Of a DNA stretch of 64,000 bases, positions 1 to 23,433 are shown piece by piece. Under the pieces are notes generated by a model that was given only the letters and a program-made list of their open reading frames with translations, was not told the DNA's origin and did no database searches. The stretch spans positions 1-64,000 of the forward strand of contig PGYR01000008.1 in NCBI GenBank assembly GCA_002839765.1, written 5' to 3'. Source of the DNA: Ignavibacteriae bacterium HGW-Ignavibacteriae-4. GTDB lineage: Bacteria; Bacteroidota; Ignavibacteria; Kapaibacteriales; UBA2268. Positions within the stretch are counted from its first letter, which is position 1. Each line of letters begins with the position of its first letter. A program made the translations under genes and the position numbers.

Positions 1-130
1 CACTCTGATAACGCCGTAGGCGTTAGAAGAGTCCAGGGGAACTTCGTAGGAGTTCAATATTAATGGGACTAAAGTCCAAGTGGTCTGGGATTGATTTCAA
101 ATCCGTTGGCTAAAGCCAACTGCAATACTA
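1..130. repeat. Composite multi-hairpin intergenic repeat, copy A
   Basis: Consecutive short inverted repeats: TAACGCC-gta-GGCGTTA (9-25), GAACTTC-gta-GGAGTTC (40-56), GGACT-aa-AGTCC (66-77), GTTGGC-taaa-GCCAAC (105-120). Same order of modules on the opposite strand at about 49067-49254. Confidence 0.75.
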
Positions 131-243
131 GTCAATTTAGGTTTTTTGATGGGTTAAAGTTAAAAAAAATATCATATTACTTTTATTTTTCTTTGAATAA
201 GATTATATTCAAACTCAACAAATAGGACATTTAGATAAAAAGC

Positions 244-1833
244 ATGAAAAAACTAATACTATTAATAATAACTACAATTATAGTTTCTTCAACTTCCTTT
301 TCACAAGACTGTGTTGATGAAGAGAATATATATGAATTTTATTATCATGGAAAGAAATATGAGTTTATCAAACAAAGTAAATGGTGGCCTCATGCTGATG
401 AATGCGCTGAGAATAGAGGTGGTTATTTAACAGTAATTGAAAGCCAGGAAGAAAATGATGCAATTTTAAATTTCCTTACTCATGAATTACCAACTAAATA
501 TGATGTTGAGTTACTTGATAATGACATAAAAACTAATCATAATATATGGATAGGTGCATTAAACTTTATAGATACATGTACATGGGTATTTCGGAATTCT
601 AAGGATTCAATAAGACACTTCTATTTTGGGATTGAAGAGAATGGAAGGGTCTTAGATGGTGGGTTTGTGAATTGGGGAGCTATTAACGGTATGCTAAATT
701 ACCCAAAACGAATTCCTGATTTATGCGGAATATCAATGACACTTGAAGCATATTATGATACTACAAAAAAAGAAAAAGTAACAGAACCTGGTCAATGGGT
801 TAACCAACGAAATCAAATATTCAACTATTTCATTATAGAGTATGATTGTTTTGATACTATAAGAGTAGAAAGTGATTTCAAAATCTGTTTTGGTGAATCT
901 ATAGTATTCGATGGAGATACTATTACTGAAGCTGGTGTATATAGTGATACTGTTGAAACTTACTCCTATTGTGATTCTATACATACTTTAATTGTATATA
1001 AAAATGAACTAGATGATGAGATAAGAGTTGATAATAAAACAATCAGATGCCTAGAAACAAATGCTGACAAATACGAATGGTTTTCGTGTGATGGATTGGA
1101 AGGGCTTGGAATATTAATTAGCGAGAATAGGATTTTATATACACCAACAAAAACTGGTAAGTACCGAGTCAAATTAACAAAAGGTCAATGTGAATATATA
1201 TCCACTTGTTATGAAGTTTGTTTTCCCACAACTAATACGCTAGATACAGTAAAATGTAAGAATGATGCTTTATCAATAAATGATATCGAATACACGAAAC
1301 AAGGGTTTTATACTCAACAACTAAAGCAAAAAGGATTTGATTGTGATTCTACATTAGAGATTGATATTCGAGATGTAGCTATAAATCTAAACGTGAAGCA
1401 ACAAAGTGGTAAACTAGTATCATCAGAAAGTGCAGGTGAATATCAATGGTATAACTGCGAGGGAGATGTACTAATTGCAGATGCCACTCAAAAAGAATAT
1501 ACACCTAAAGAAGATGGTGATTATAAATTAGAGATAACTAAAAAAGGTTGTATAGATTATTCTCAGTGCATCTCATTTTCAACTTCAACTAATAGCGTAA
1601 TAGACATACAAAACTCAGAAAACATAAGACTAGATTTAGGCAATAATCTTATTGTATTTGACAATATAAACTATAGCCAAGTAGAACTATTAGATATGAA
1701 TTCTAAGACTATCTATAAATCAGATAAATATGCTCAATCAATTAGTATTGAGTATTTAAATACTGGTGTTTACTTCTTGAAAGTCGTGATTGGAAATGAA
1801 GTTGAGATGTTTAAGTTTCTAATAACTGAATAA
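244..1833 (+). CDS. C-type lectin-like domain protein with T9SS type A C-terminal sorting domain
   Basis: Signal peptide; CTL-like block (CAENRGGYLTVIESQEENDAI...IWIGALNF...WVNQRNQIFNYFIIEY); C-terminal GVYFLKVVIGNEVEMFKFLITE typical of a T9SS CTD. Confidence 0.75.
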   Translation: MKKLILLIITTIIVSSTSFSQDCVDEENIYEFYYHGKKYEFIKQSKWWPHADECAENRGGYLTVIESQEENDAILNFLTHELPTKYDVELLDNDIKTNHNIWIGALNFIDTCTWVFRNSKDSIRHFYFGIEENGRVLDGGFVNWGAINGMLNYPKRIPDLCGISMTLEAYYDTTKKEKVTEPGQWVNQRNQIFNYFIIEYDCFDTIRVESDFKICFGESIVFDGDTITEAGVYSDTVETYSYCDSIHTLIVYKNELDDEIRVDNKTIRCLETNADKYEWFSCDGLEGLGILISENRILYTPTKTGKYRVKLTKGQCEYISTCYEVCFPTTNTLDTVKCKNDALSINDIEYTKQGFYTQQLKQKGFDCDSTLEIDIRDVAINLNVKQQSGKLVSSESAGEYQWYNCEGDVLIADATQKEYTPKEDGDYKLEITKKGCIDYSQCISFSTSTNSVIDIQNSENIRLDLGNNLIVFDNINYSQVELLDMNSKTIYKSDKYAQSISIEYLNTGVYFLKVVIGNEVEMFKFLITE

Positions 1834-1920
1834 AGGTTAACAAAGGATTCTATTTCTCATTCATCACTATATATACTTTCATTAATATTATTACTATTTT
1901 GTCTCTCTAACATGTTTTGA

Positions 1921-2340
1921 TTAATCAAAATGTTTTAATTTGTAATCAACTTTAAAATTAATCTTATTCCCAATTACTTCAGGAGAAATAAATATTACCT
2001 CACATTTATTTGCATATGAAATATTAATTTTTAAGTATTCCTTAATATCAATAACTATATCATCTTTATTCAATAATAATGACGAATAAGTTCTAGTATG
2101 ATATTTAGAAGAAAAGTTTTCTTCTAAATATTTTTTAGAATTCTCTGTAAGCTTACCATCAATTTTACTTTTAGTAAAAATTTCATATTCTAAATTATAT
2201 TTATTAAAATCAAAAAGTATAAGCTGAATTTTTTGGGGTATTAATTTATTTGCACAATCACACCCAAATTTAATTTCTCCTACATCATAATTACAACCGC
2301 AGGTACAAATAATTAGTAAAATAATAATACTATTTTTCAT
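1921..2340 (-). CDS. Small lipoprotein, candidate immunity protein for the adjacent RHS toxin tip
   Basis: Lipobox-like N-terminus (MKNSIIILLIICTCGCN); start overlaps the stop of the upstream RHS ORF (ATGA-type overlap). Confidence 0.55.
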   Translation of the reverse strand: MKNSIIILLIICTCGCNYDVGEIKFGCDCANKLIPQKIQLILFDFNKYNLEYEIFTKSKIDGKLTENSKKYLEENFSSKYHTRTYSSLLLNKDDIVIDIKEYLKINISYANKCEVIFISPEVIGNKINFKVDYKLKHFD

Positions 2341-3320
2341 TTTTTTGACTTAGTTTTTTTTTCTGTTCTATTTTTCTCATTGGATTTTTTTATCACCTTA
2401 CTCACATATTTTTGTTGTCCACTAGATACAACTCTATCAAAGTTTTCATGATTTTCTGGATACATAACATTATTTTCACTATCTTCTCTAATATCTTGTC
2501 TTATTAAGTCTTGCTGCAAAGTATTTTTCTCATCCTGTTCTGACATTATGTGAACTAACCCAGTAGGATGAGTCATATCATGTAATGATGCATTTTGTAA
2601 GCTTTTCATTGATTTCAAGTTACCTTCTAAATCTAAAAATTTCAACACTATCGTATTACTATACGAATCTGCATTTTCCCCAACTTTAACAGTTTTAGCC
2701 TCTGGGTTACTTGGGTCCCCTTTAAATTCATCAATTAATTCAAGCTTAAAAGCCGCTTCTTTATCTGTGAAAGTTATCCATTCTGGCTTCATTAAATAAT
2801 CTATGTCTTTAGTATCTCCACCACTCATCATCTCACTGAATTTTTTCTTAAATTCATCTTTGAACTGTTGAATATATTCTAAAGGTACAGCCGAACTTGT
2901 TTTATCAATCACTTGAATATAAACAAATCTTTGTATTTCAGTTTTCCCATCACTTTTTTGAACTACTTTTTCAGACCATTCTGCTCCTTCTAATTCCGCA
3001 CCATCAATTACTCTATTTTCACTAAATGCATACGGACTATTCCAAGGATAAGTAGGCGCAAGGGGATCAATCGTAAAGAACCTTCCTAATCTGGTATCAT
3101 CCATTCTATATGTATAATTTACACTATTTCCCTCCCCTTTTAACTCATCGTCTTTCTCCTGTCCTTGGAAACCATATCGATACCATTCGCTAGACCAGTT
3201 CCGATCTGGCATAAGCATACCAAATGGATAGTAGGTATTAGCAGATGATAAATCAACTTTAAATCTAGCCCCATCTTTTAATTTTAAATCGGTTATAGTT
3301 GCTCTCACATTTCCCAACAT
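2337..3320 (-). CDS. Orphan RHS repeat-associated core fragment with C-terminal metzincin-like domain
   Basis: RHS core signature (LGNVRATITD...YYPFGMLMPDR...YRYGFQGQEKDDE...YRMDDTRLGRFFTIDPLAPTYPWNSPYAFSENRVIDGAELEG) followed by a unique tip containing HDMTHPTGLVH and NNVMYPENHENFD. Lacks the long upstream RHS repeat region. Confidence 0.75.
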   Translation of the reverse strand: MLGNVRATITDLKLKDGARFKVDLSSANTYYPFGMLMPDRNWSSEWYRYGFQGQEKDDELKGEGNSVNYTYRMDDTRLGRFFTIDPLAPTYPWNSPYAFSENRVIDGAELEGAEWSEKVVQKSDGKTEIQRFVYIQVIDKTSSAVPLEYIQQFKDEFKKKFSEMMSGGDTKDIDYLMKPEWITFTDKEAAFKLELIDEFKGDPSNPEAKTVKVGENADSYSNTIVLKFLDLEGNLKSMKSLQNASLHDMTHPTGLVHIMSEQDEKNTLQQDLIRQDIREDSENNVMYPENHENFDRVVSSGQQKYVSKVIKKSNEKNRTEKKTKSKK

Positions 3321-3344
3321 TTTCCATTTGCTATAATCTTATTA

Positions 3345-3417
3345 GTGATTAACTTATCATATTGTTGGGAATAATGCAAACGAAGTTGAGATGTTTAAGT
3401 TTATGGTGGTGGAGTAG
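3345..3417 (+). pseudogene. Remnant of a T9SS C-terminal domain coding sequence
   Basis: In-frame translation LTYHIVGNNANEVEMFKFMVVE* matches the C-terminus of the 244..1833 product (IGNEVEMFKFLITE*); no intact upstream ORF. Confidence 0.6.
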
Positions 3418-3424
3418 GGAAATT

Positions 3425-3451
3425 CTACTCCTAAAGGAGTAGTTTTTTTTT
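3425..3451 (+). terminator. Hairpin plus T-tract (possible terminator, or part of the hairpin repeat cluster)
   Basis: CTACTCC-taaa-GGAGTAG followed by TTTTTTTTT. Confidence 0.45.
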
Positions 3452-3474
3452 CTAATTTTACAGCTACTAATATT

Positions 3475-3737
3475 ATATCCCTAACGGGATATTGATTGGG
3501 ATCTATTGAATTTCAATATCGTATAAATCCGTGCAATCATTAAATCCGATTAATCCTTGATTCAGAAGTTAGTCCTAATAAACAGCAACCGACGGCTAAC
3601 TGCAAAAACTCCGTAGGAGTTCAATATTAGTAGCCTGTAGTTTCCCTTAAACCAGCTACCCCGTAGGGGTAGAATAAAAAAGGAATTTTTTATACCTAAA
3701 CTCTGCTAGCTACTTATATTATATCCCTTTGGGATAT
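3475..3737. repeat. Cluster of 7-bp-stem hairpins related to the composite repeat
   Basis: ATATCCC-taac-GGGATAT (3475-3492), AACTCCGTAGGAGTT module (3607-3634), CTACCCC-gta-GGGGTAG (3656-3672), ATATCCC-ttt-GGGATAT (3721-3737). Confidence 0.7.
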
Positions 3738-3820
3738 TTTTATCGACTCTCGTCCTTTATCTATTCAATCTCACATGTCTTAGTATGTGGTATTACCAAA
3801 AGCCAATTCAAAAAATATGT

Positions 3821-3856
3821 AAAAAAAAAAAGAGACAAATTTCCATAGGTCTCTTT
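3821..3856 (-). terminator. Rho-independent terminator downstream of the DUF1573 gene
   Basis: On the minus strand AGAGAC...GTCTCT followed by a long T-run. Confidence 0.6.
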
Positions 3857-3884
3857 ATTTTTTCAATTCTATTTTCTTTGTTCT

Positions 3885-4580
3885 CTATTTTGTAGTACCG
3901 ACCATCCCTCTTACAGGAATCTCGATTAACGGATGTTTCTTGCTATTTGTAGTTAGGACTATTTTTGTATCATAAACACCTTCTGTGCCTGTCTTCAATA
4001 TACCTTCTACCGAGTTATGTGTACCAGCTTTAAAAACAAAACCTTTTTTAATGTTAGTTTTAAGATTTTGGTCTGTGATAGATACGTTTGTTACTGTTAT
4101 ATCTTTATTTGTGTGGTTCGAAAGTACAATTCTTGCTGTCATTTCTGTATTCAAATCTACAGTTCCCATATTCATAAATTTAGGGAATAGCTCAATTGGA
4201 ATTTTTACATTAGCTTTTAGCAAAAAATCTATTCTATCATTCTTTGGGTCGTTTGTTGTGAACTCTATTCCTTTGGTAATAGGGCCATTATCTTTCTCTA
4301 TTTTCAAATCAACTTTTACAGTAGCTATGTCTCCTGGATCTAATAGCTTTTTATCAATTGGAGCTGTTGTACAGCCACATCCAGGTTTTACTGCGAATAT
4401 TTCTAATAGTTTATCACCAGTATTCTTTATCTTGATAGTTGTTTTTAGAGGACCTTCGTTTTGCATTACTTTCCCCCAATCCTTTACGGGGTCGCCCACA
4501 AACTCAAATTTTGGTTGACTAAATGCTACAGATGTTATGCATAATGCAATTATTATTGGTATTACTTTTCTCATATTCAA
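3885..4580 (-). CDS. DUF1573 domain-containing protein
   Basis: Signal peptide; WGKVMQNEGPLKTTIKIKNTGDKLLEIFAVKPGCGCTTAPIDKKLLDPGDIATVKV typical of DUF1573. Confidence 0.85.
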   Translation of the reverse strand: MNMRKVIPIIIALCITSVAFSQPKFEFVGDPVKDWGKVMQNEGPLKTTIKIKNTGDKLLEIFAVKPGCGCTTAPIDKKLLDPGDIATVKVDLKIEKDNGPITKGIEFTTNDPKNDRIDFLLKANVKIPIELFPKFMNMGTVDLNTEMTARIVLSNHTNKDITVTNVSITDQNLKTNIKKGFVFKAGTHNSVEGILKTGTEGVYDTKIVLTTNSKKHPLIEIPVRGMVGTTK

Positions 4581-4679
4581 TTCTATTTGTTATTTTCAAT
4601 ATCTACTAATGGCTAATACGATAAATATTAGTAAAAAGTTTAATTATACAAATATAACTGAAAAACACATAGGTTTACA

Positions 4680-5828
4680 ATGCTTTCATTCGAATTAAAT
4701 GAACTACAAGAAACTATAAGAGATACAGCACGATCATTTGCAAACGATGTAGTAGCACCAGGTGCTTCCGACAGAGACAAAAATGCTGAATTCCCAACAG
4801 ATATAATCCAACAGGTTGGTGAGCTAGGATTTTTAGGTATGAATGTGCCCGAAGAATGGGACGGAAGTGGACTTGATAATGTAAGCCAATGTATAGTTAT
4901 TGAAGAGTTTGCGAAAGTAGATGCCAGTGTTTCTGTTATCGTATCAGTTCAAAAACTTGTAAACTCCGTATTAGTCAGATCGGCATCTGATTCTATAAAA
5001 GAAAGATACCTAAAGCCAATGGCTAGGGGAGAGATGCTTGGTGCATATTGCCTTTCTGAACCAGAAGTCGGCTCCGATGCGCGTGGTATAAAGACTATGG
5101 CTATTGATCAAGGTGACCACTATCTAATAAATGGATCAAAAAACTGGATAACAACTGGTAGCAAAGCAGGTGTCTTTCTAGTTTTCGCACAGACGAATCC
5201 AGAACTGAAGCATAAGGGAATAACGGCATTCGTAATGGATGCAAAGTCAGAGGGTGTTAGTATAGGACTAAAAGAAGATAAAATGGGACTGAGAAGCAGT
5301 GACACTGTTTCCCTTGCCTTCAATAATGTAAAAGTACCAAAAGAAAATGTTGTGGGAAAAGTCGGGGAAGGTTTCTACTTAGCAATGCAAGGACTAGCAG
5401 GTGGACGTATTGGTATTGCTTCCCAAGCATTAGGACTAGCGAAAGCAGCTTTCGACTTATCTGTAAAATACTCTAGCGAAAGGCATACTATGGGCGTTCC
5501 TATTAATCAACACCAAGCAATTCAAATCAAACTAGCTCAAATGTCTATGAAAATATCAGCAGCAGAGCTATTAGTACAAAAAGCAGCTTGGTTAGACGAT
5601 TCTGGGCAAGATGTTTCAAGACAATCATCTGAAGCAAAACTATTTGCATCTACAATTGCTAATGATATTGCACGCGAGGCGGTACAAATTCATGGTGGTT
5701 ACGGCTATGTTCGTGAATATCTTGTAGAGCGTATAATGCGTGATGCTAAGATAACTGAGATATACGAAGGTACATCTGAAATTCAGCATATAGTAATTGC
5801 AAGAGACGTGATAAAGAATGCACAATAA
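4680..5828 (+). CDS. Acyl-CoA dehydrogenase
   Basis: Full-length ACAD: YCLSEPEVGSDARGIKTMA, ITTGSKAGVFLVFAQT, AVQIHGGYGYVREYLVERIMRDAKITEIYEGTSEIQ. Confidence 0.95.
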   Translation: MLSFELNELQETIRDTARSFANDVVAPGASDRDKNAEFPTDIIQQVGELGFLGMNVPEEWDGSGLDNVSQCIVIEEFAKVDASVSVIVSVQKLVNSVLVRSASDSIKERYLKPMARGEMLGAYCLSEPEVGSDARGIKTMAIDQGDHYLINGSKNWITTGSKAGVFLVFAQTNPELKHKGITAFVMDAKSEGVSIGLKEDKMGLRSSDTVSLAFNNVKVPKENVVGKVGEGFYLAMQGLAGGRIGIASQALGLAKAAFDLSVKYSSERHTMGVPINQHQAIQIKLAQMSMKISAAELLVQKAAWLDDSGQDVSRQSSEAKLFASTIANDIAREAVQIHGGYGYVREYLVERIMRDAKITEIYEGTSEIQHIVIARDVIKNAQ

Positions 5829-6510
5829 GAAAGATATAATTCTTTTGCATGGTGCTCTTGGGACTAGTCAACAGTTCACACCATTGATTAGTCATCTTGA
5901 AGGTGAGTATAATATTCACACTTTCGATTTGCCTGCACATGGTGAGCTTGCGTATCAGGCCGATGAGCTTTCTATGTTCAGCTTTGCTAATTATGTACGT
6001 AACTATATAATCAAGAATAATCTACAAAAGCCACTTGTATTCGGGTTTAGTATGGGTGGTTTTGTTGCTCTTACACTTCAGTCCCAAACCAATATATTCA
6101 GTAAGATAATGACGCTGAATACGAAATTGGAATGGGATTTAGAGACGGCTGAACGTGAACAGAAAATGTTTGACCCAGAGATTATATTAGAGAAAGTTCC
6201 ACACTATGCTGATCTGCTGATAGCAATGCACGGTGAAGAAAACTGGAAGAGCTTACTAGCTAAACATAGAAATATGATGTTTACAATTGCGAAATCTACA
6301 CCTCTGACTGACTATGCTTTGTCGAAGATAAACATACCAGTACTACTGACAAAAGGTGATAGAGACAATATGGTGACTTCTGAGGAAACGAGAGTAGTTG
6401 TCGGTAAATTGTCAGATGCTGAATTCTATGAATTCGAGAATACCGCCCATCCGATTGAAAAAATAGATTTGAATTTACTTTCAAGTAAAATCAAAGAATT
6501 TCTTATTTAA
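5818..6510 (+). CDS. Alpha/beta hydrolase
   Basis: HGALGTSQQF, nucleophile elbow GFSMGGF, C-terminal His (ENTAHPIE). Overlaps the ACAD stop. Confidence 0.85.
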   Translation: MHNKKDIILLHGALGTSQQFTPLISHLEGEYNIHTFDLPAHGELAYQADELSMFSFANYVRNYIIKNNLQKPLVFGFSMGGFVALTLQSQTNIFSKIMTLNTKLEWDLETAEREQKMFDPEIILEKVPHYADLLIAMHGEENWKSLLAKHRNMMFTIAKSTPLTDYALSKINIPVLLTKGDRDNMVTSEETRVVVGKLSDAEFYEFENTAHPIEKIDLNLLSSKIKEFLI

Positions 6511-6961
6511 AATATTTGCTTATCATTTCTTCTCTAAAATCGAATATGCCATCGACTTTCTTCCCAATAAATAGCTTATCAAGTATAGGCCCCAATATAC
6601 CTTTGCCTATGTCATAAGTAAGTATGTCTGTCATTTCTGTTGTATTCTCATCTACTTTACGGAAGTGATGCTCGTGATGCCACATTCTATATGGCCCAAT
6701 TCTTTGCTCATCCACAAAATATTCCTTTTCACTGATTTTAGTAATCTCAGTTACCCAATTGAACTTCATTAATGGGAGAGGGGAGACCTTGTATCTGATT
6801 ATCATTCCTTCATACATTTTCTTACCTTTAGTATCAGTAAGGAATTGGAATTTCATATCATCAGGAGTGATTTCGTTTAGGTTTTCGGGTCTAGAGAAAA
6901 AATCCCATACCTTATCTATGTTCTGGGGGACTATTGAAGTCCAAGTTTTTGTAGTTGGCAT
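6503..6961 (-). CDS. SRPBCC family protein (polyketide cyclase/START-like)
   Basis: DKVWDFFSRPENLNEITPDDMKFQFL...GMIIRYKVSPLPLMKFNWVTEI pattern. Confidence 0.8.
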   Translation of the reverse strand: MPTTKTWTSIVPQNIDKVWDFFSRPENLNEITPDDMKFQFLTDTKGKKMYEGMIIRYKVSPLPLMKFNWVTEITKISEKEYFVDEQRIGPYRMWHHEHHFRKVDENTTEMTDILTYDIGKGILGPILDKLFIGKKVDGIFDFREEMISKYFK

Positions 6962-8992
6962 TTATTTTTTTACTGGGGTAATTGCTTTTATTGTTACGGT
7001 TCTAGAGTAGAAACGTCCTTCTGGCAAATTATTGTTGTAGATTATAATGGATTCACCGTAAGGGAAAAGCTCTTTTTTATTATTTGGGAATTGTGCCGAA
7101 ACGGACTCTGTTCTCTTTTTCGAAAGAGTTTTATTGTAATCTGATTCACCAATTTTATCAGAATAGCCTGATATTTCTAAGCTCGAATTATTAGTAATAT
7201 TATCTTTTACGATATCGAGAATTTCCGAATTTTTCTTACTTAACTCGTATTTATCAAAGTCAAATAGAATTAGGCTATATTTATCTATTCGTACATCACT
7301 TATTTTGTCTCTTTCTTTTTTCTTAAGTGAGTTGATTGTTACATTTATTCGACCAGTAACATTTTCTCTTTCTTCTTTAGCATTTATCAAATCAAATCTG
7401 TAAGTCAATTCGTTTTTATCTTTAATTTGGTAAGCTATATCTTCTGTTATTTTAAAATGTGTTTTAAGCGGTGGATCTAATCGTCCACTCTCTTCAAAAT
7501 AAGGCGAATTCTCATCGTTGAATACCTTAAAATTCCAAGAAAAGTCCTTTACATTAGTATCTAACACTGTATAGAAGTTAATTTCTTTAGTTATTGGAGT
7601 ATATAGTGTGTCATTTAATAATAATGGTTCTAATAAATTATCATCACTAGAGTAAAGCTCTACTCTCTGGTTTTCTTCTATTGATTCTAATTCTGAGCTT
7701 GTAGATGGTATAGTTGGTTTGTCAATAGATGATATGACTAATCTTTTTTCGGCGATTCCCCAAGTATTTGTGAGATAATCTCGAACGGTTTTTGCTCTCT
7801 CTATTGGAAGAATTTTAGCTAAATCACCAATTTCATTCACAGATTTAGTCCCAACTATATTCAATTTCGATTTGGGGTTAGCCATCATTCTTTCACCGAT
7901 TATATTCAATAGATGATGATATATATCTAAAGTATTAACTTCAAATAAATTATTCGAATTGAAACTATAAGATTCTTTTTTATTCAGGGTGCTATACCTA
8001 ATTGGCATAGCAGTAGAGTCTTTATCGAAGAAAATATAATTAAGTAACGGAACCATTCTAATAGATTTCACTTCATCTATTACTACTTCATTTCGGTCTT
8101 GGCGTTTATCATTTTTATCAATTGTTACCGGACGAATTATAACTTTTGGAGTGTCCGTTTTATTCACCGCTAAATTAGTAGTAACAGTGTCATCAATAAC
8201 TATCTCTAGTAGCTTAGGTTCAATATTTTTTTCTAGAGCAACTTCATTAGCTGATGCTCCAGCAAAATTATAAGCCCAATCCACCCCAAAGTTGATACTA
8301 TTTGGAGTCAAATTCATTTCTTCGTTTGTAGAGTTCAGCCCTATATTGAAGCTAATATTTGGATTAAGGTACGTTGTTTTATTTTTACTTGTGTATAAAC
8401 GATAAGCAAACTTACCAACTAGACTGTGGTATATGCTATTAGCTAAAACTCCACTGACATCTGTACGAGTTCTACTTCCAGATTCTTGGAAAACTCCATC
8501 GCTGGGAGCAAGCAAAATCTCAGTTTGGCGGTAACTCAAATCATTTGGTAGGCCTAATCTATAACCAAATGAGGCATCGAATGATTCGAATAATTCAAAT
8601 ATAGCTCCTAAGCTAATACCTATAGAACTAAGTTCTGAAACAACTTTCTGTTCAATTGTTGCGTCTTCCTTATTAGTACCAAGTAAATTTATTTGCTCTG
8701 ATTCATTAATAATGAAATTAGACTTCATATTTGTATAATCTAATCCTAAAAATATCCAAGTAGTTTCGCCGACAAGATAGTTATACCCAGCGCCGAAGTT
8801 CAAACCAGTACTGAAACCAGAAGTAAACCCAGGACAACATGTATTTGCATTTCCTAGATTCTTGAAATCAGAGCCATATAAATTCAGACCGAAGTTAGTA
8901 CCTACATAAACGGTATGTTCATTAGCTTCTTCTTTAGAACTAAGTCCAAAAGAGCCAATTATGATTAATAATATGGTGAGTATGCTTTTCAA
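6962..8992 (-). CDS. OmpA-family outer membrane protein with OmpA-like C-terminal domain(s)
   Basis: LILFDFDKYELSKKNSEILDIV...LEISGYSDKIGESDYNKTLSKKRTESV. The ORF is open to 9070, but the signal peptide begins at a TTG (LKSILTILLIIIGSFGLSS, nt 8992), 1 nt after the upstream gene's stop. Confidence 0.75.
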   Translation of the reverse strand: MKSILTILLIIIGSFGLSSKEEANEHTVYVGTNFGLNLYGSDFKNLGNANTCCPGFTSGFSTGLNFGAGYNYLVGETTWIFLGLDYTNMKSNFIINESEQINLLGTNKEDATIEQKVVSELSSIGISLGAIFELFESFDASFGYRLGLPNDLSYRQTEILLAPSDGVFQESGSRTRTDVSGVLANSIYHSLVGKFAYRLYTSKNKTTYLNPNISFNIGLNSTNEEMNLTPNSINFGVDWAYNFAGASANEVALEKNIEPKLLEIVIDDTVTTNLAVNKTDTPKVIIRPVTIDKNDKRQDRNEVVIDEVKSIRMVPLLNYIFFDKDSTAMPIRYSTLNKKESYSFNSNNLFEVNTLDIYHHLLNIIGERMMANPKSKLNIVGTKSVNEIGDLAKILPIERAKTVRDYLTNTWGIAEKRLVISSIDKPTIPSTSSELESIEENQRVELYSSDDNLLEPLLLNDTLYTPITKEINFYTVLDTNVKDFSWNFKVFNDENSPYFEESGRLDPPLKTHFKITEDIAYQIKDKNELTYRFDLINAKEERENVTGRINVTINSLKKKERDKISDVRIDKYSLILFDFDKYELSKKNSEILDIVKDNITNNSSLEISGYSDKIGESDYNKTLSKKRTESVSAQFPNNKKELFPYGESIIIYNNNLPEGRFYSRTVTIKAITPVKK

Positions 8993-8993
8993 T

Positions 8994-11900
8994 CTATTTA
9001 GTAATAGTGAATATTTTTGTAATGATATCAGTTGGTGTTTCCAACCTGAGGATATAATTTCCGTTTGCAATATTCTTTGTATTAATTTCAGTTTGGTGCT
9101 CTCCTTTTCCCAAGTCTTTTGCAGCTAAAGTAGTTACTAATTTGCCTTTAATATCATAGACGGATAAGTTAGTAAATCCATCTTCTACCAAATTATAATC
9201 TACAAAAAAATCTCCATTTTCTGCTATAATGTCTATTCTATTTGGAGGACTTTCATCATACAATCGGTATTGACCATCAGAAAGACAAACACCGTCAAGT
9301 GTGAAAAGTCCGTCGTTTTCTTCTATTTTCTTTTGTAATATTTCCTCGTCTCGGCTATTATATGCTCTAACATCTACAATATCTAAAACAGTAGTAATAG
9401 CATTGCCAATTGTTGGCAAAAAGCGGTTCTCAACTAAATTACTCATTATCTCTTCATTGCCAATTTTAAATGTAATCTGGCGAACTTTATTAACGACAAT
9501 CCCTTCGTCATTTAGGCGGAATGGCAGTAAAAGAGTTGCATTGTATTCTAAGTCAACTTCCAATCGCGTCAAATCCAACGAGTTAGGATTATCAGTTATG
9601 TTAATCTTCACTGGAATTAAAGTCAAATTCCCAGGGAATGCACTTAAAGTGTCAATTGAAACAGTCATACGGACTGAATCTTTACTTATACCATTACCGA
9701 GTAGTTTTACTATGACGGGCTCTCTTCTAACATCTAAATAGAAATGAACTTCGGCGTTGCTAGCACCAGCAACTTTTGGTGTGTAAGTGAATTCTGATTT
9801 CAGAGTATCAAATGCATATATATGGCTCTTAGTAGTTGTAATGTTATAACTATACTCGTTGTTTATATCATTTACAATGATCACACTATCAATTCCAATC
9901 GATGCTACACTTTTATTACGAACTACCCAATCATCTTCTGTTTTTTGGAGGGAAATATCTACGTTACCAAAATCAATAACTGGTTCTTTGTATGACCAAA
10001 GGAAAGTCGAGTTATCACCTATTTCTTCAGAAAGTAAATAAAAATAGAATTTACCTTGAGTAGTTTCAATCGTTCCTCTTGCTATGTTGCTTCCTGACAT
10101 ATCAGAGTTGAATCTGAATCTAACATCTATTTTGTCTTGTAAATCAACAGGCCCTACGAAATCAGTTTCATATCTTATATCGTCGATTGTAATATTAATG
10201 ATAGTAACATCACCGGGTAGTACTCTAGTTATGAAGTCGAGTACTAAGCTGTCTTTCCTGCTGTTTATATATACTTTACCGAAGTCAATAGTGTCAATAT
10301 AGTCAAATGAAGCTTCTTTAATAGACCAAAGTGAGTCTGAAATGTCCGAGTTGATGGTGTTATATTCCAAAGACCAAATAAACTCCTTCACATAATTAGA
10401 GTTATATACTATGTCACTTTGAAAATTATTCCCGAAATCTAGGCTGTCATTTATATTACCAGTTAGTACAACTCTATTTTCAGAAGTAAAGAGATTACCT
10501 GTGTAAACCGGCTTTTCAAGGTATCTCGTCCAATTTATTTCACCATTATATAGATTTGCAGAAGTTAGGAATATTGTGTTTGATCTACTCCTTGGTATTG
10601 TATCAGAACCAATTAATATACGCTCATTAGTTCTACCAGCTAGTATTATCGTACTATTGTCAAAAACATCTATATTCTTATCCAACATAAATTTATCATA
10701 TTGTCTATCCCATAATAATTCATTATTATCATTAATTGCTAATAAACGAACTGATGATTCCTCTTCTCCCATGAATTTCGTTTCACCATCATAATAGGTA
10801 GTATCAGTAGTTCGAACTAAATAATAATTAATATCTTTATATGATTTATAATCCAAAGTAGTTTGATCAAAACTTTCATCGTAGGATATATAATTTTTCA
10901 ATTTCAATTCTGGGTTGTTATAATCGTTTTCTACAGCCATAACTCTGCTGAAGTTAGTGTCCAATTTCAGATGACCAGCTCCAGTTCCAGTCCCCCATAG
11001 TACAACTTTATCATCTGATATAGGTTGCATTCCTCTATAATCAAAGCTCAGACTATCTAGCTTATAATCCCAATAATTAACTTTCTCAAAGTTCAAATCT
11101 GCATCAATTCGAGCTAAGTAATTAATACGATTATATTCTAGTCTGTTTATTACGTTAGTAGAGTCATAACTTAATTCACCATTAGTATTTCCAAATAAGT
11201 GTAATTTGTTATCAGATGCTTCTAATCCCTTGAAGTATGTAATTCCTGATACAAGTTGAAAATGATTTTCTATTAATTTATAAGAATCTAGATTTAGATT
11301 CTTATCTATTTTTAGTAATACTCCAGTAGAATAACTTGGGCGTTCATGTTTATAATTAAGATTATCAAATTCTATTGAATTAGCACTAATACATAATAGA
11401 AATATATGATCTTTAATGCTAGTCATAAGATAGTTAATCTCTTGTGTGTAAAACACGCGATGACTCACCGGATCCAAATTTTCGTCAAGTATTATCAGTA
11501 CAGTTCGTAAAGCATCCTTATAATCTCGTATTTGTCCTATTGTATCTAACTTAAGATTTCTATATTCAAACTTATCTTTAAATTTGGTTAACATTATGTA
11601 TTGTTTATCACCGAATTTGATTATACTATTTACTTTAGATTGCGAAGTTGAGTCTATTAGCCCCAAGCTATGAGTTTGAATTCTATTCTGAACTTTACTT
11701 GCCTCAGTTACCTTAAGCAAAGCTTCTTCCGTTGGTGTATCGGGAATCTTCTCCCAGGGGAAATCTAAGGCGTTATAATTCGATACGATCTTATTCCAAC
11801 TAAAACCAGCATCAGCTGAATATTCGACATTGTAACTCAAATTACCTTCTGAATTTTCCCATCTAAGACTAGTGGCATTGCCTACATAATATTGCTCCCC

Positions 11901-17533: not shown

Positions 17534-17563
17534 CAAAGCCAAGTGGAAACACTTGGCTTTTTT
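17534..17563 (+). terminator. Rho-independent terminator after clpC
   Basis: GCCAAGTG-gaaa-CACTTGGC followed by TTTTTT. Confidence 0.85.
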
Positions 17564-17581
17564 GGTTTTGAATACAGTATT

Positions 17582-19333
17582 TTATTCCTCTAAATTAAGT
17601 TTATAATTTCCAAGTTTTAATAATGCTGTGATAAGCAAAAGCATAGTACTAGCTAAATAATTTTTTGTTTGATAAAAACAATGAGCAACATTATTTCTTA
17701 AATTCATCCCATCAGATGTAAAAAGAAATTTAAAAAATGCAATGTCATCTTCAGGAATAATTTCATTAAGCTTGACGTTATCTAATAACTTTTCGAATGA
17801 TATTCTCTCTTGAGTAGCATTCTCTTTAATCTCAATAGTTTGTGCACCAATATGTTTTGAAAATTCTCTTAGTAGTCCTTCAAATTTTATTACCAATGAA
17901 TCTATTGGTAGTATATAGCCTATACTACTATTTTTATTTTGTTTTATATCAATTTCAATTTGGTTGAAAAAGCTAAAAAGTGAAGGAGATAATAATTCAA
18001 TCCAGTTAAAACCTTCCACTTGACCTTCAGTATTTACGGATGTAAAATCTTGACCATACCAAGAATTCTCTTTTAAGAAATCAATTATTGTGTTGAGAGT
18101 CACTTTTCCTTTTTTGAAACCCTTTGAAATTATCATCCAAAGATAGTTTATAGAAAAACTTTGAATATAAATTGAATAAGGATCAATTCCACTTTTCTTA
18201 TTGCCTGTGACATTCTTATTAATATCAAAATTCATTACACTTACAAGATCTAGTGCAACTGGTCGTATTTCTTCATACAGTACTGCTGCATTAGGGAATA
18301 TTTTATCACAAAGTATTAAGTATGTATATATTCCCTTGCTATCATATTTATCTATTATTTCATCAGTTTCTTTATTAAATAAATCCCAAATTTTTTGGAA
18401 TTCTTCATCTGTATTTTCAACTTCTAATAATTCGAAATTTAAGTTCTTTTTAGCCTTTTCAATTAATACTGTGACATCTTCAATTTTTTCTTTATTACCA
18501 GCTTTTTTATACTGTACCAATGCTTTTAAATAAAAGTCGTGGACAATAAAGCTTCCTTTATGTTCTTCTGATTTAGTGATATAAAATTCAGCAAGTCTAT
18601 TATGAAATGGTTTAGGGGGAACACTTATTTTTTGACTTAGAATAATTTGTAAACCTAAGTATTCTTCTAATAATTCAGGATAGGTTTTATTTTCAATTAT
18701 GCATTTAGAATATTCAAAAAAAGTGTTAAAATTAGAAATATCTATTTTTTTTCCTTTCTTGACAATGAAATTCACTAATGAATATTCTGTATAGCTATTT
18801 ATAATATACTTACCTAAATGAGAAATTAGAAATTGTATTACCTCATCTTTTTTAAAGTTTGAATATTGTGAAAGAATAAAAAGATTTTGAAAATAACTTC
18901 CAAAGGATTGATTTGATAAACTATCCTGATAATTAAATGATACAGTTTTTAGAAAAGCTAAATAGTTATCTATTGCCAAGGTAGCGAAAGAGCGATGTTT
19001 GTGTTCACTATTCCAAAGTAGATGATTGTATTTTGCTTTGTATTTGGGATTTACTGTTTTCTCTGCGCGTATTTTTATATAGTCTAAATCGTCATTAAAT
19101 AAATCTAAATTTGGATAGGATGATCTGTCTATATCATGATATTTGGGATTTGAATTTCCATCTCTAAATATGTAATCGTTAAAAAATAACTCATAAGAAC
19201 AATATTTTTTTAGATCAGCATCCTCAATTTTATCCCTTAGTTCTAATAATGAATTTGAGATACTAATATCAATGATCAAACTATTATCACTTTCGAGATA
19301 ATTATAATATTCGTCTAAGTTTTCAAACTTCAT
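17582..19333 (-). CDS. DUF4209-like protein, companion of the Shedu-like gene
   Basis: C-terminal FTSDGMNLRNNVAHCFY...ASTMLLLITALLKLGNYKL resembles the DUF4209 lRNxxAH block; 30 bp downstream of the DUF4263 gene on the same strand. Confidence 0.6.
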   Translation of the reverse strand: MKFENLDEYYNYLESDNSLIIDISISNSLLELRDKIEDADLKKYCSYELFFNDYIFRDGNSNPKYHDIDRSSYPNLDLFNDDLDYIKIRAEKTVNPKYKAKYNHLLWNSEHKHRSFATLAIDNYLAFLKTVSFNYQDSLSNQSFGSYFQNLFILSQYSNFKKDEVIQFLISHLGKYIINSYTEYSLVNFIVKKGKKIDISNFNTFFEYSKCIIENKTYPELLEEYLGLQIILSQKISVPPKPFHNRLAEFYITKSEEHKGSFIVHDFYLKALVQYKKAGNKEKIEDVTVLIEKAKKNLNFELLEVENTDEEFQKIWDLFNKETDEIIDKYDSKGIYTYLILCDKIFPNAAVLYEEIRPVALDLVSVMNFDINKNVTGNKKSGIDPYSIYIQSFSINYLWMIISKGFKKGKVTLNTIIDFLKENSWYGQDFTSVNTEGQVEGFNWIELLSPSLFSFFNQIEIDIKQNKNSSIGYILPIDSLVIKFEGLLREFSKHIGAQTIEIKENATQERISFEKLLDNVKLNEIIPEDDIAFFKFLFTSDGMNLRNNVAHCFYQTKNYLASTMLLLITALLKLGNYKLNLEE

Positions 19334-19363
19334 TCTTACTCATTTATTTTGATTTATTGTTGT

Positions 19364-20623
19364 TTATCTTTTCATAACTTTTTGCAGACTTTCAATTTTT
19401 GTATTCAACTCGTCAAAAGTTAAGATTTCAACATCTCTACTATTACTTCTATATAATTCAAAACTATATCTTTGTTCGTTGGAAAGTGTTTTTAAAGTTC
19501 CAACTAATACTACACATTTTGAATTAAATGTTTCGACAGCTGTTTTACTTTTTCCTTTTAGTGCCCAAAATTCTTTCTGAAAGTTGTCTCTTTGGTTTAG
19601 AACTTGATTTATACTTCCTGTTAAGTCTTTTCCAACACTAAAAACGTCAGAACCTCGATAGGTTGTTTTTTCCATTAGTTTTGTCTTATGAGTCTTAATT
19701 TCTAAAAATGAAACATTATCACTTAAACTATTCTGTATCAGAAAGTCGTTAAACTTTCCATTTTTATTGTCGATTGTTTTTCCTCCTACATAAGCTTCGT
19801 TTTGATATAAAATTACAGGTTGAGCAAATATTGATGAAAATATCCAACTATTGTCTTTTAAAAACAATTGCCATAACTTTTCAAGACTTTCACTACTTGT
19901 TTTAAGGGACATTAATTCCTTGTATCTTTTCAATGTCTGCTGAATATATCTATTATCAACAATCTCTTTAGTCTTTGCTAATGCATCTTTGGTAAAAAAA
20001 TCTTGTGTAATCGAAAGTTTATCAAATAAATCTTTAATCGCACTTTTATCAGAATCTGAAAATTCATCTATTGAATTCCCCCAACTAGATAAAGATACTG
20101 CCAAAGCGTTTGGAATAAATGTTTTTTCAGGTTTTGTTATAACATTCGGAAATAGAGAATATAGGTTTAATTTCAATACAAAATTGACTTCTTCTTTGTT
20201 CTTTTTGAAAATGACTGTAAAAGCATTTAAAAGATCTTTTAGACTTTTTTCATTCAAGAATAGTTTTTTATTTGATAAATCTAATTCAACTTTTCCAGTC
20301 TTATTTATTATTACTTCTTCAATTTCATAATTATCATTAATATGATATGCGAATGGATTGAGTGTTTTCGTAAATCCCCAACCAAAATTTACAGACTTCA
20401 CAACACCAACAGGTAATTTCCCATTAAAGCCATTATATATAAATTTTTTAATAGTTTTATACTTCTGACCACCTTCAAAACCTCTTGGATAGTGAATGAT
20501 ACGGTCATTATTTTTATATATCTCACTTGAAATTTGCTTTATACTATTTTCGGTATCATAAAAAAACAATACTTTTTTAGTTGGTAATTCACTTTCTAAT
20601 TTTTCACCTTTAAAAACTGTCAT
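19364..20623 (-). CDS. Shedu-like DUF4263 (PD-(D/E)XK nuclease-like) anti-phage protein
   Basis: LWQLFLKDNSWIFSSIFAQPVILYQNEAYVGGKTIDNKNGKFNDFLIQNSLSDNVSFLEIKTHKTKLM...YRGSDVFSVGKDLTGSINQVLNQRDNF: characteristic DUF4263 block with D...ExK catalytic residues and a separate N-terminal domain. Confidence 0.8.
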   Translation of the reverse strand: MTVFKGEKLESELPTKKVLFFYDTENSIKQISSEIYKNNDRIIHYPRGFEGGQKYKTIKKFIYNGFNGKLPVGVVKSVNFGWGFTKTLNPFAYHINDNYEIEEVIINKTGKVELDLSNKKLFLNEKSLKDLLNAFTVIFKKNKEEVNFVLKLNLYSLFPNVITKPEKTFIPNALAVSLSSWGNSIDEFSDSDKSAIKDLFDKLSITQDFFTKDALAKTKEIVDNRYIQQTLKRYKELMSLKTSSESLEKLWQLFLKDNSWIFSSIFAQPVILYQNEAYVGGKTIDNKNGKFNDFLIQNSLSDNVSFLEIKTHKTKLMEKTTYRGSDVFSVGKDLTGSINQVLNQRDNFQKEFWALKGKSKTAVETFNSKCVVLVGTLKTLSNEQRYSFELYRSNSRDVEILTFDELNTKIESLQKVMKR

Positions 20624-20742
20624 AATCTTCTAATATTGATTTAAGTAAAATTTATGTACTTTCCGAACCCAAAATACAAAAAAATCTCTCCTTACATCAA
20701 CTAAAAAACAAAAAGGACCGCTCAATAATATAAAAAACATTA

Positions 20743-20800
20743 TTTGTTGTTAATATATTAGTAAAAGAGATAAACAAATTAGTTTGTTGTTAAAGTATTA
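20743..20800. repeat. Pair of 18-bp direct repeats upstream of the Shedu-like gene
   Basis: TTTGTTGTTAATATATTA (20743-20760) and TTTGTTGTTAAAGTATTA (20783-20800), 40-nt periodicity. Confidence 0.65.
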
Positions 20801-20865
20801 ACATCAAAAGTCGTTGTCGCTCATAATTATGAAAATGTGAGCAACAAAGGTTAAGGGATGATACC

Positions 20866-22312: not shown

Positions 22313-22682
22313 TCAAAATCTCTTGAATAATATTATCTTTGCTTTATGAATAATTCCAAGAGTTCCTGTTATTTTTAAATTCAATTTATTAGCTAATTTT
22401 CTGGCTTTCATATCATCAAGTAACAATAAAACATCGTCATATTCTTTTGCTAATGCAATTGCACTTGCCTCTCCTATTATTTACCTGAGTTTCAAGGAGC
22501 ATTTGATATTTTTTATCATTAACTGATTCTACTTTAATCCAATTAGGAAGCTCTTCTCCGTATTCTTCAGCTATCTCTGGAGTGGTTACAAGTTCTATAT
22601 AAAGTTTCTGCAACAGGTCAAGTTGTTCAATTTTCTGAAGGATTATTAATGTACTTGTATCTGATATTACAATTTTAGGCAT
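22313..22682 (-). pseudogene. DUF3368 / PIN-like toxin, disrupted by an apparent single-base insertion
   Basis: N-part MPKIVISDTSTLIILQKIEQLDLLQKLY...LLETQVN in one frame; skipping one base near 22478 restores IGEASAIALAKEYDDVLLLLDDMKARKLANKLNLKITGTLGIIHKAKIILFKRF*. Confidence 0.8.
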
Positions 22683-23028: not shown

Positions 23029-23433
23029 TTAGAACTCCCTAATCACATTCCTTACTACACCCCAGATGGAGAATTCATCGAGGTCGGTGATTCGTATGTC
23101 TTCGTAGTCTTCGTTTTCAGAGTGGAGAATTGTTCTATCGTCTGTGAATAATATTCTTTTCACGAATGGTTTCCCGTTCAATGCACCTACGACAATTGAT
23201 TCATTCGAGATTGGGTAGTTGCTATTCACAAGTACTTTATCCCCCGAATTAATTCCGATATTTATCATCGAATTACCCGAAACTTCAACTAGAAATACAT
23301 AACCATCATCGCCTAGAATCTCTTCGTTTAGGTCGAATTTCGTACGGCTCAATCTTTTCAGAAAGTCCGTGTTATTAAGTATTTTAGAAGAGTTGTTGCG
23401 TTTTTGCAACCTCGAATACAATGTCATAAACAC
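23029..23433 (-). CDS. S24/LexA-UmuD-like peptidase without an N-terminal HTH
   Basis: EVSGNSMINIGINSGDKVLVN...GALNGKPFVKRI: Ser55/Lys92 catalytic dyad with UmuD-like spacing. Confidence 0.8.
   Translation of the reverse strand: MFMTLYSRLQKRNNSSKILNNTDFLKRLSRTKFDLNEEILGDDGYVFLVEVSGNSMINIGINSGDKVLVNSNYPISNESIVVGALNGKPFVKRILFTDDRTILHSENEDYEDIRITDLDEFSIWGVVRNVIREF

What the first reader, a model, noticed from the sequence alone, without database searches (positions are those of the whole stretch)
17582..20623. Two-gene Shedu-like (DUF4263) + DUF4209 cassette: candidate anti-phage defence system
Seen: two same-strand genes 30 bp apart. The first has the DUF4263 block with a D...EIK catalytic pattern and its own N-terminal domain. 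The second is a 583-aa protein with a DUF4209-like C-terminal RN..AH block. They sit between housekeeping clpC (convergent, own terminator) and an SGNH hydrolase. Established: DUF4263 is the domain of the Shedu (SduA) defence protein, usually described as a single gene. Inference: the DUF4209 partner may be a second component (sensor, regulator or effector) of a Shedu variant. The N-terminal domain of the nuclease may be the trigger module.
Basis: partly seen in the sequence, partly recalled or inferred. Interest (0 to 1): 0.72.

Follow-up and report, generated by a model that had tools for sequence, protein, structure and literature searches.

The report
Shedu nuclease beside a HEPN-type defence gene
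Two neighbouring genes, a known type of phage-DNA-cutting enzyme (Shedu) and a predicted RNA-cutting partner, sit together as a small imported defence cargo; each family is already known on its own, and their pairing was found nowhere else, so it looks like a one-off combination of two defence genes rather than a new two-part system.

Summary
Gene 1 (19364-20623, minus strand, 419 aa) is a genuine Shedu/SduA nuclease with every PD-(D/E)XK residue conserved. Gene 2 (17582-19333, minus strand, 583 aa) is a DUF4209 protein: a TPR-like helical part plus a C-terminal domain with an invariant R-x4-H motif. That matches the published HEPN-RNase family 'C6orf70/DUF4209' and PADLOC's candidate PDC-S39. 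The 30-bp gap, matching low GC (26-27%) and absence from the same clpC-SGNH slot in two congeners indicate an acquired, probably co-transcribed cargo.

The inferred two-component Shedu variant is not supported. The only loci holding both families were copies of this one, among about 90 DUF4209 and about 45 Shedu loci examined. Close DUF4209 relatives (46-59% identity) are solo (two in integron-like cassette arrays) or beside restriction genes; a 33% relative lies inside a type I hsd operon. The closest full-length Shedu relative (49%) lies between hsdS and hsdR. Both are modular accessories, often tied to restriction systems, here placed side by side.

Most likely function: layered defence, a DNA nuclease plus a HEPN RNase back-up, each self-sufficient. 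Coupling is unproven. New member of a known kind; modest interest.

The parts
19364..20623 (-). Shedu (SduA) nuclease gene, 419 aa
   Evidence: PF14082 2.9e-24; PADLOC SduA PDLC00384 1.5e-69 over residues 68-418; PDB 8ti8 2.1e-37
19907..20623 (-). Shedu N-terminal part (about residues 1-239), the presumed sensor/regulatory domain
   Evidence: Outside the SduA_C match (246-406); aligned to the N-terminal parts of full-length relatives, with P71, G81 and G83 invariant; sensor role inferred from the literature
19694..19702 (-). E308-I309-K310, catalytic EIK of the PD-(D/E)XK site
   Evidence: Invariant in 14/14 aligned sequences; aligned with the EIK of 8ti8, which reads AIK in chain 8ti9
19745..19747 (-). 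D293, catalytic aspartate of the PD-(D/E)XK site
   Evidence: Invariant in 14/14 aligned sequences
17582..19333 (-). DUF4209 (PDC-S39) gene, 583 aa; start codon 30 bp after the Shedu stop
   Evidence: PF13910 1.4e-8; PADLOC PDC-S39 1.2e-12; all 49 aligned members match PDC-S39
18194..19333 (-). TPR-like alpha-helical N-terminal region of the DUF4209 protein (about residues 1-380)
   Evidence: AlphaFold2 model, mean pLDDT 88.7, paired helices; weak, non-significant Foldseek matches include kinesin light chain TPR domains
17585..18187 (-). C-terminal predicted HEPN domain (residues 383-583)
   Evidence: DUF4209 is the C6orf70 HEPN family in PMC3710099; AlphaFold2 model pLDDT 90.2, pTM 0.87; PDB fold search gave no significant match
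17681..17698 (-). R546-N-N-V-A-H551, HEPN-type R-x4-H motif
   Evidence: R and H conserved in 60/60 family members that cover it; invariant in alignments A3 and A4
17535..17560 (.). Bidirectional intrinsic terminator between clpC and the DUF4209 gene
   Evidence: Stem of 11 pairs with T tails on both strands; 2 sites found against 0.6 expected; conserved in congeners
17574..20701 (.). Species-specific insert in the clpC-SGNH slot; contains exactly the two genes
   Evidence: Homology to congeners G310 and G267 stops at about 17573 and resumes at 20702-20849 (G267 only) and at 20864 (both); G310 carries three unrelated small genes in the slot, G267 one short ORF next to clpC

Best explanation
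The locus is a small acquired defence cargo made of two autonomous, individually mobile effectors that are probably co-transcribed. The first is a Shedu nuclease: its N-terminal domain is expected to sense invading DNA (free ends, by analogy with E. coli SduA), which would release its PD-(D/E)XK domain to nick or cut that DNA. The second is a DUF4209/PDC-S39 protein: a TPR-like part linked to a HEPN RNase, expected to cut RNA and cause dormancy or death if infection proceeds. Together they would give layered defence (first DNA, then RNA), as in the published model of HEPN RNases backing up restriction systems (PrrC type). Shown here: gene identities, conserved catalytic residues, acquisition at a variable slot, and non-recurrence of the pair. 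Inferred: co-transcription, activity, triggers, RNA target and layering.
For: Family hits and conserved catalytic residues for both proteins. Same strand, 30-bp gap, matching GC and GC3 (26.0/27.3% and 17.8/18.6%). Slot variable among congeners. DUF4209 relatives are solo (for example L085, L088, L089, L093, L099) or next to varied restriction genes: type IIG-like (L092, L095, L098), type I (L053, L057, L102, L144), type II (L008, L054). Two solo DUF4209 genes lie in integron-like cassette arrays (L086, L087). Full-length Shedu relatives are solo, beside ATPase genes, or in type I operons. Literature: DUF4209/C6orf70 HEPN 'fused to TPR', 'occurs in R-M related operons'; HEPN and R-M as multi-pronged defence.
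Against: No activity or expression data. The HEPN fold was not confirmed: neither the fold search nor the profile search of PDB sequences found a HEPN structure. Promoter predictions are no better than chance (23 found, 22 expected), so co-transcription rests on the short gap alone. A single occurrence cannot separate functional layering from mere adjacency.
Confidence: 0.57

Rival explanations
1. Obligate two-component Shedu variant: the DUF4209 protein is activated by, or regulates, the Shedu nuclease, and both are needed.
For: Adjacent, same strand, 30-bp gap and the same base composition; nothing else lies in the insert.
Against: No other locus carries the pair: profile searches of all loci fetched found both families only in copies of the window locus. 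In 394 class genomes, 14 have DUF4209 and 25 have Shedu, with only this genome adjacent. In 398 phylum genomes no other genome has both a DUF4209 match and a relative of this Shedu. Close relatives of each gene stand alone or with other partners.
Confidence: 0.12
2. Unrelated neighbours: two independent defence genes that landed in the same cargo slot with no functional link.
For: The slot is variable and takes several unrelated same-strand genes in congener G310; each family is mobile alone.
Against: Matching composition and a 30-bp gap fit a joint, co-transcribed arrival better than two separate insertions; this is weak evidence.
Confidence: 0.2
3. Leftover of a type I restriction operon: both proteins were accessories in the hsdS-hsdR slot and remained after hsdM, hsdS and hsdR were lost.
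For: The closest full-length Shedu relative is in hsdM-hsdS-Shedu-hsdR (L169); three plasmid relatives have the same order with one more gene before hsdR (L179, L180, L187). DUF4209 relatives occupy hsdM-hsdS-DUF4209-hsdR (L053, L102, L144).
Against: No hsd fragments were seen in the 3.1-kb insert, which the two genes fill; no type I operon with both accessories was found; the three type I hsdM loci of this genome lie on other contigs.
Confidence: 0.08
4. Toxin-antitoxin-like pair, one protein restraining the other.
For: HEPN RNases are often toxins of such pairs (PMC3710099); some distant DUF4209 genes overlap or abut a small downstream gene (L139-L143, L145, L146, L151).
Against: Both partners are large predicted enzymes, each found without the other; no small antitoxin-like gene is present here.
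Confidence: 0.03

Closest known systems
Shedu (SduA), Pfam SduA_C PF14082; solved structures 8ti8/8ti9/8tia
   Same: Same C-terminal PD-(D/E)XK domain with D293, E308, K310; an N-terminal domain shared with annotated 'Shedu immune nuclease family' proteins on plasmids
   Different: N-terminal part not matched to 8ti8 in the sequence search (only residues 240-417 matched); the gene sits beside a DUF4209 gene
PDC-S39 (PADLOC phage-defence candidate) / DUF4209, the C6orf70 HEPN family
   Same: DUF4209 domain, invariant R-x4-H motif, helical TPR-like N-terminus; solo occurrence in close relatives
   Different: Here directly behind a Shedu gene, a context not found in any of about 90 relatives
PrrC-type restriction plus HEPN RNase back-up
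   Same: DNA-cutting enzyme next to a predicted HEPN RNase gene; DUF4209 relatives lie in type I hsd operons, as prrC does (own knowledge)
   Different: Here the DNA cutter is Shedu and no restriction-modification genes are present; coupling is untested

Membership tests
Shedu (SduA) | SduA_C (DUF4263) domain over the curated cut-off | tested here: met
   86.5 bits against a cut-off of 27; PADLOC SduA 1.5e-69
Shedu (SduA) | PD-(D/E)XK catalytic residues | tested here: met
   D293, E308, K310, with E248 and Q344, invariant in 14/14 aligned sequences
Shedu (SduA) | PD-(D/E)XK fold by structure | not tested
Shedu (SduA) | Own N-terminal regulatory domain | tested here: met
   Presence only: PDLC00384 match spans residues 68-418; N-terminal residues conserved in relatives. 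Regulatory role not tested
Shedu (SduA) | DNA-end sensing, oligomer, anti-phage activity | not testable with these tools
   Needs experiments; reported for E. coli SduA (PMC12904381)
DUF4209 / PDC-S39 | DUF4209 domain over the curated cut-off and PDC-S39 match | tested here: met
   35.1 bits against 22.3; 1.2e-12
HEPN superfamily (C6orf70 family) | Conserved R-x4-6-H motif | tested here: met
   R546-x4-H551 in 60/60 members; family assignment from PMC3710099
HEPN superfamily (C6orf70 family) | HEPN fold | tested here: inconclusive
   Confident, mostly helical model with the motif at a helix, but no PDB match at E <= 0.001
HEPN superfamily (C6orf70 family) | RNase activity | not testable with these tools
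   Needs experiments
Two-gene Shedu + DUF4209 system | Recurrent pairing across genomes | tested here: not met
   Pair found only at the window locus
Type I R-M accessory module | Located inside an hsd operon | tested here: not met
   No hsd genes in the window, although relatives of both genes are so located

The most novel reading that the evidence does not exclude
A compound Shedu-HEPN defence unit in which the DNA-sensing nuclease and a TPR-HEPN RNase act in sequence or by direct activation, without any restriction-modification system; a newly assembled lineage-specific combination.
Probability: 0.15. Interest if true: 0.5.

Novelty: new member of a known kind. Interest (0 to 1): 0.3.

Why it matters
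It shows how defence cargo is assembled from interchangeable parts: Shedu and DUF4209-HEPN proteins both occupy the same accessory slot (between hsdS and hsdR) of type I restriction operons, both also stand alone, and here they are joined without any restriction system. It also gives a concrete prediction for the uncharacterised PDC-S39/DUF4209 family: a HEPN RNase with a TPR-like sensor part. If the pair proved to act together it would be a small example of layered DNA-then-RNA defence.

Tried and rejected
Close-relative scan of genome contigs with the DUF4209 protein alone gave nothing; the alignment-based scan gave 68 loci. That scan used one degenerate peptide pattern, so the list is incomplete. 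The viral-contig scan failed on the machine and was not repeated. No relatives of either protein were found in phage records. PDB fold searches with the whole DUF4209 model and with its C-terminal domain gave no significant match, and a profile search of PDB sequences gave only chance hits, so the HEPN assignment rests on the motif and the 2013 paper. The Pfam Piezo_cap and NCBIfam PCNA-inhibitor matches are below their cut-offs and were dismissed. PF13910 matches in G051 and G242 (L058, L059) were set aside as weak or broken. I considered whether the cassette carries an integron attC site like L086/L087: none was recognised by eye at 17574-20701; no systematic attC search was run. A mis-joined contig was considered and rejected: clpC, the SGNH gene and further neighbours keep the same order in congeners. 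The two main Shedu papers (Loeff 2025, Gu 2025) are not held, so their content is taken from citing papers.

Full report
OBSERVATION. The two genes are real and placed as described: 19364-20623 (419 aa) and 17582-19333 (583 aa), both minus strand, 30 bp apart. The first is a Shedu nuclease by every sequence test: SduA_C 2.9e-24, PADLOC SduA 1.5e-69 over residues 68-418, and solved SduA chains 8ti8 and 8ti9 at about 2e-37 over residues 240-417. In an alignment of 14 sequences (the window protein and 13 relatives) E248, D293, E308-I309-K310 and Q344 are invariant. The second carries DUF4209 (1.4e-8) and matches PADLOC's candidate PDC-S39 (1.2e-12). The neighbours are as described: convergent clpC with a bidirectional terminator at 17535-17560, and an SGNH-like gene with a just sub-threshold DUF4886 match.

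WHAT GENE 2 IS. Anantharaman et al. 2013 (PMC3710099) had already placed DUF4209 in the HEPN superfamily as the C6orf70 family: motif conserved, fused to TPR, 'occurs in R-M related operons'. The AlphaFold2 model agrees with that architecture: a confident (pLDDT 88.7) array of paired helices followed by a mostly helical C-terminal domain. The C-terminal domain modelled alone is also confident (pLDDT 90.2, pTM 0.87), but PDB fold searches returned nothing significant, so the fold-level test of HEPN membership is inconclusive.

ACQUISITION. The two genes have GC 26.0% and 27.3% and GC3 about 18%, against 34.6 +/- 3.8% and 27.4 +/- 5.6% for 48 other ORFs of the window. In two congeners the same clpC-SGNH interval holds other content: three unrelated small genes in G310, one short ORF in G267. 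DNA homology stops just past the clpC terminator (about 17573) and resumes upstream of the Shedu gene (20702-20849, in G267 only) and at the SGNH 3' end. The insert therefore consists of exactly these two genes in a variable cargo slot. Gene order around it is conserved in congeners, which argues against a mis-joined contig. No other clear defence genes were recognised in the window apart from a truncated PIN-like ORF, so this is not a defence island in the usual sense.

IS THE PAIR A SYSTEM? In 394 genomes of the class, 14 carry DUF4209 and 25 carry SduA_C; three carry both, and only the window genome has them adjacent. In 398 genomes of the phylum, no genome other than this one appears both among those with a DUF4209 match (13) and among those with a relative of this Shedu protein (11). 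A scan of a collection of 85,462 species genomes gave 68 DUF4209 relatives; none has Shedu in the fetched flanks (up to 10 kb per side). The counts of about 90 DUF4209 and about 45 Shedu loci are my estimates after removing duplicates by hand.

WHAT THE RELATIVES DO INSTEAD. The nearest DUF4209 relatives (46-59% identity, mostly Flavobacteriia) are often solo genes between unrelated genes (for example L085, L088, L089, L093, L099). In L086 and L087 the gene sits in an array whose units are separated by repeats resembling integron attC sites, which would make it a self-contained mobile cassette. Others directly follow or overlap a type IIG-like restriction gene (L092, L095, L098). More distant ones sit in type I operons between hsdS and hsdR (L053, L057, L102, L144), after hsdR (L007, L009), with GIY-YIG or HpaII-like systems (L008, L054), or behind a 417-aa nuclease-like gene in Hymenobacter (L006, L133-L136, L147). 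These R-M labels outside annotated records are by eye and by similarity to seed proteins, not by curated profiles. The closest full-length Shedu relative (49% identity) lies in a hsdM-hsdS-Shedu-hsdR operon (L169). Of 12 plasmid relatives inspected, three have the same type I arrangement (L179, L180, L187), one follows a methyltransferase and S subunit (L182), and the rest are solo or beside ATPases and other genes. So both proteins use the same accessory slot of type I systems and both also live alone. The genome has three type I hsdM loci on other contigs, none with either gene.

MECHANISM. Most likely the cargo encodes two self-sufficient effectors. Shedu: N-terminal sensing and C-terminal DNA cleavage; for E. 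coli SduA the literature reports DNA-end binding by an N-terminal clamp and nicking at a fixed distance (PMC12904381). DUF4209: a HEPN RNase controlled by its helical part, acting on RNA as a second line that causes dormancy or death, as argued for HEPN genes in restriction operons. Demonstrated here: identities, catalytic residues, acquisition, non-recurrence. Inferred: activity, triggers, co-transcription, order of action.

VERDICT. Correct observation, sound family assignment, over-extended interpretation. New member of known kinds in an unusual but apparently unique combination; interest 0.3.

Noticed in passing
L197 (G000:C65:21000-38000), 5935-9992, minus strand: A type I restriction operon of the same genome carries, between hsdS and hsdR, a 416-aa cyclase-like protein (motif FIDIAGSTDMN) and a 175-aa membrane-like protein, and another cyclase-like gene between hsdM and hsdS; possibly a cyclic-nucleotide (Pycsar-like) defence module nested in the operon.
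   Followed up: no
L086 and L087 (Olleya, Tenacibaculum), about 1-9000: Arrays of small genes separated by repeats with RYYYAAC/GTTRRRY-like ends that resemble integron attC sites; DUF4209 is one of the cassettes.
   Followed up: partly
L139-L143, L145, L146, L151, L056: A DUF4209 subfamily whose stop codon overlaps or abuts a small downstream gene (about 90-190 aa); could be a toxin-antitoxin-like partner.
   Followed up: no
L006 7644-8894; also L133-L136, L147: In Hymenobacter a 417-aa nuclease-like gene (D...FEVEK pattern) lies directly upstream of DUF4209, recurrently; this pairing, unlike the Shedu one, is conserved.
   Followed up: partly
window 22437-22682 and 23029-23433, minus strand: A short PIN-domain-like ORF (81 aa, matches PADLOC PDC-S70 at 2.5e-9, apparently truncated) and an S24-peptidase-like gene near the cargo; the surrounding SGNH-glmS stretch also differs between congeners.
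   Followed up: partly
L183 2740-4945 (Agrobacterium plasmid): A full-length Shedu relative whose gene overlaps a DUF5677 gene by 14 bp; another candidate Shedu neighbour.
   Followed up: no
L100 7125-11449: A DUF4209 gene interrupted by an IS21-like insertion in Galbibacter.
   Followed up: no
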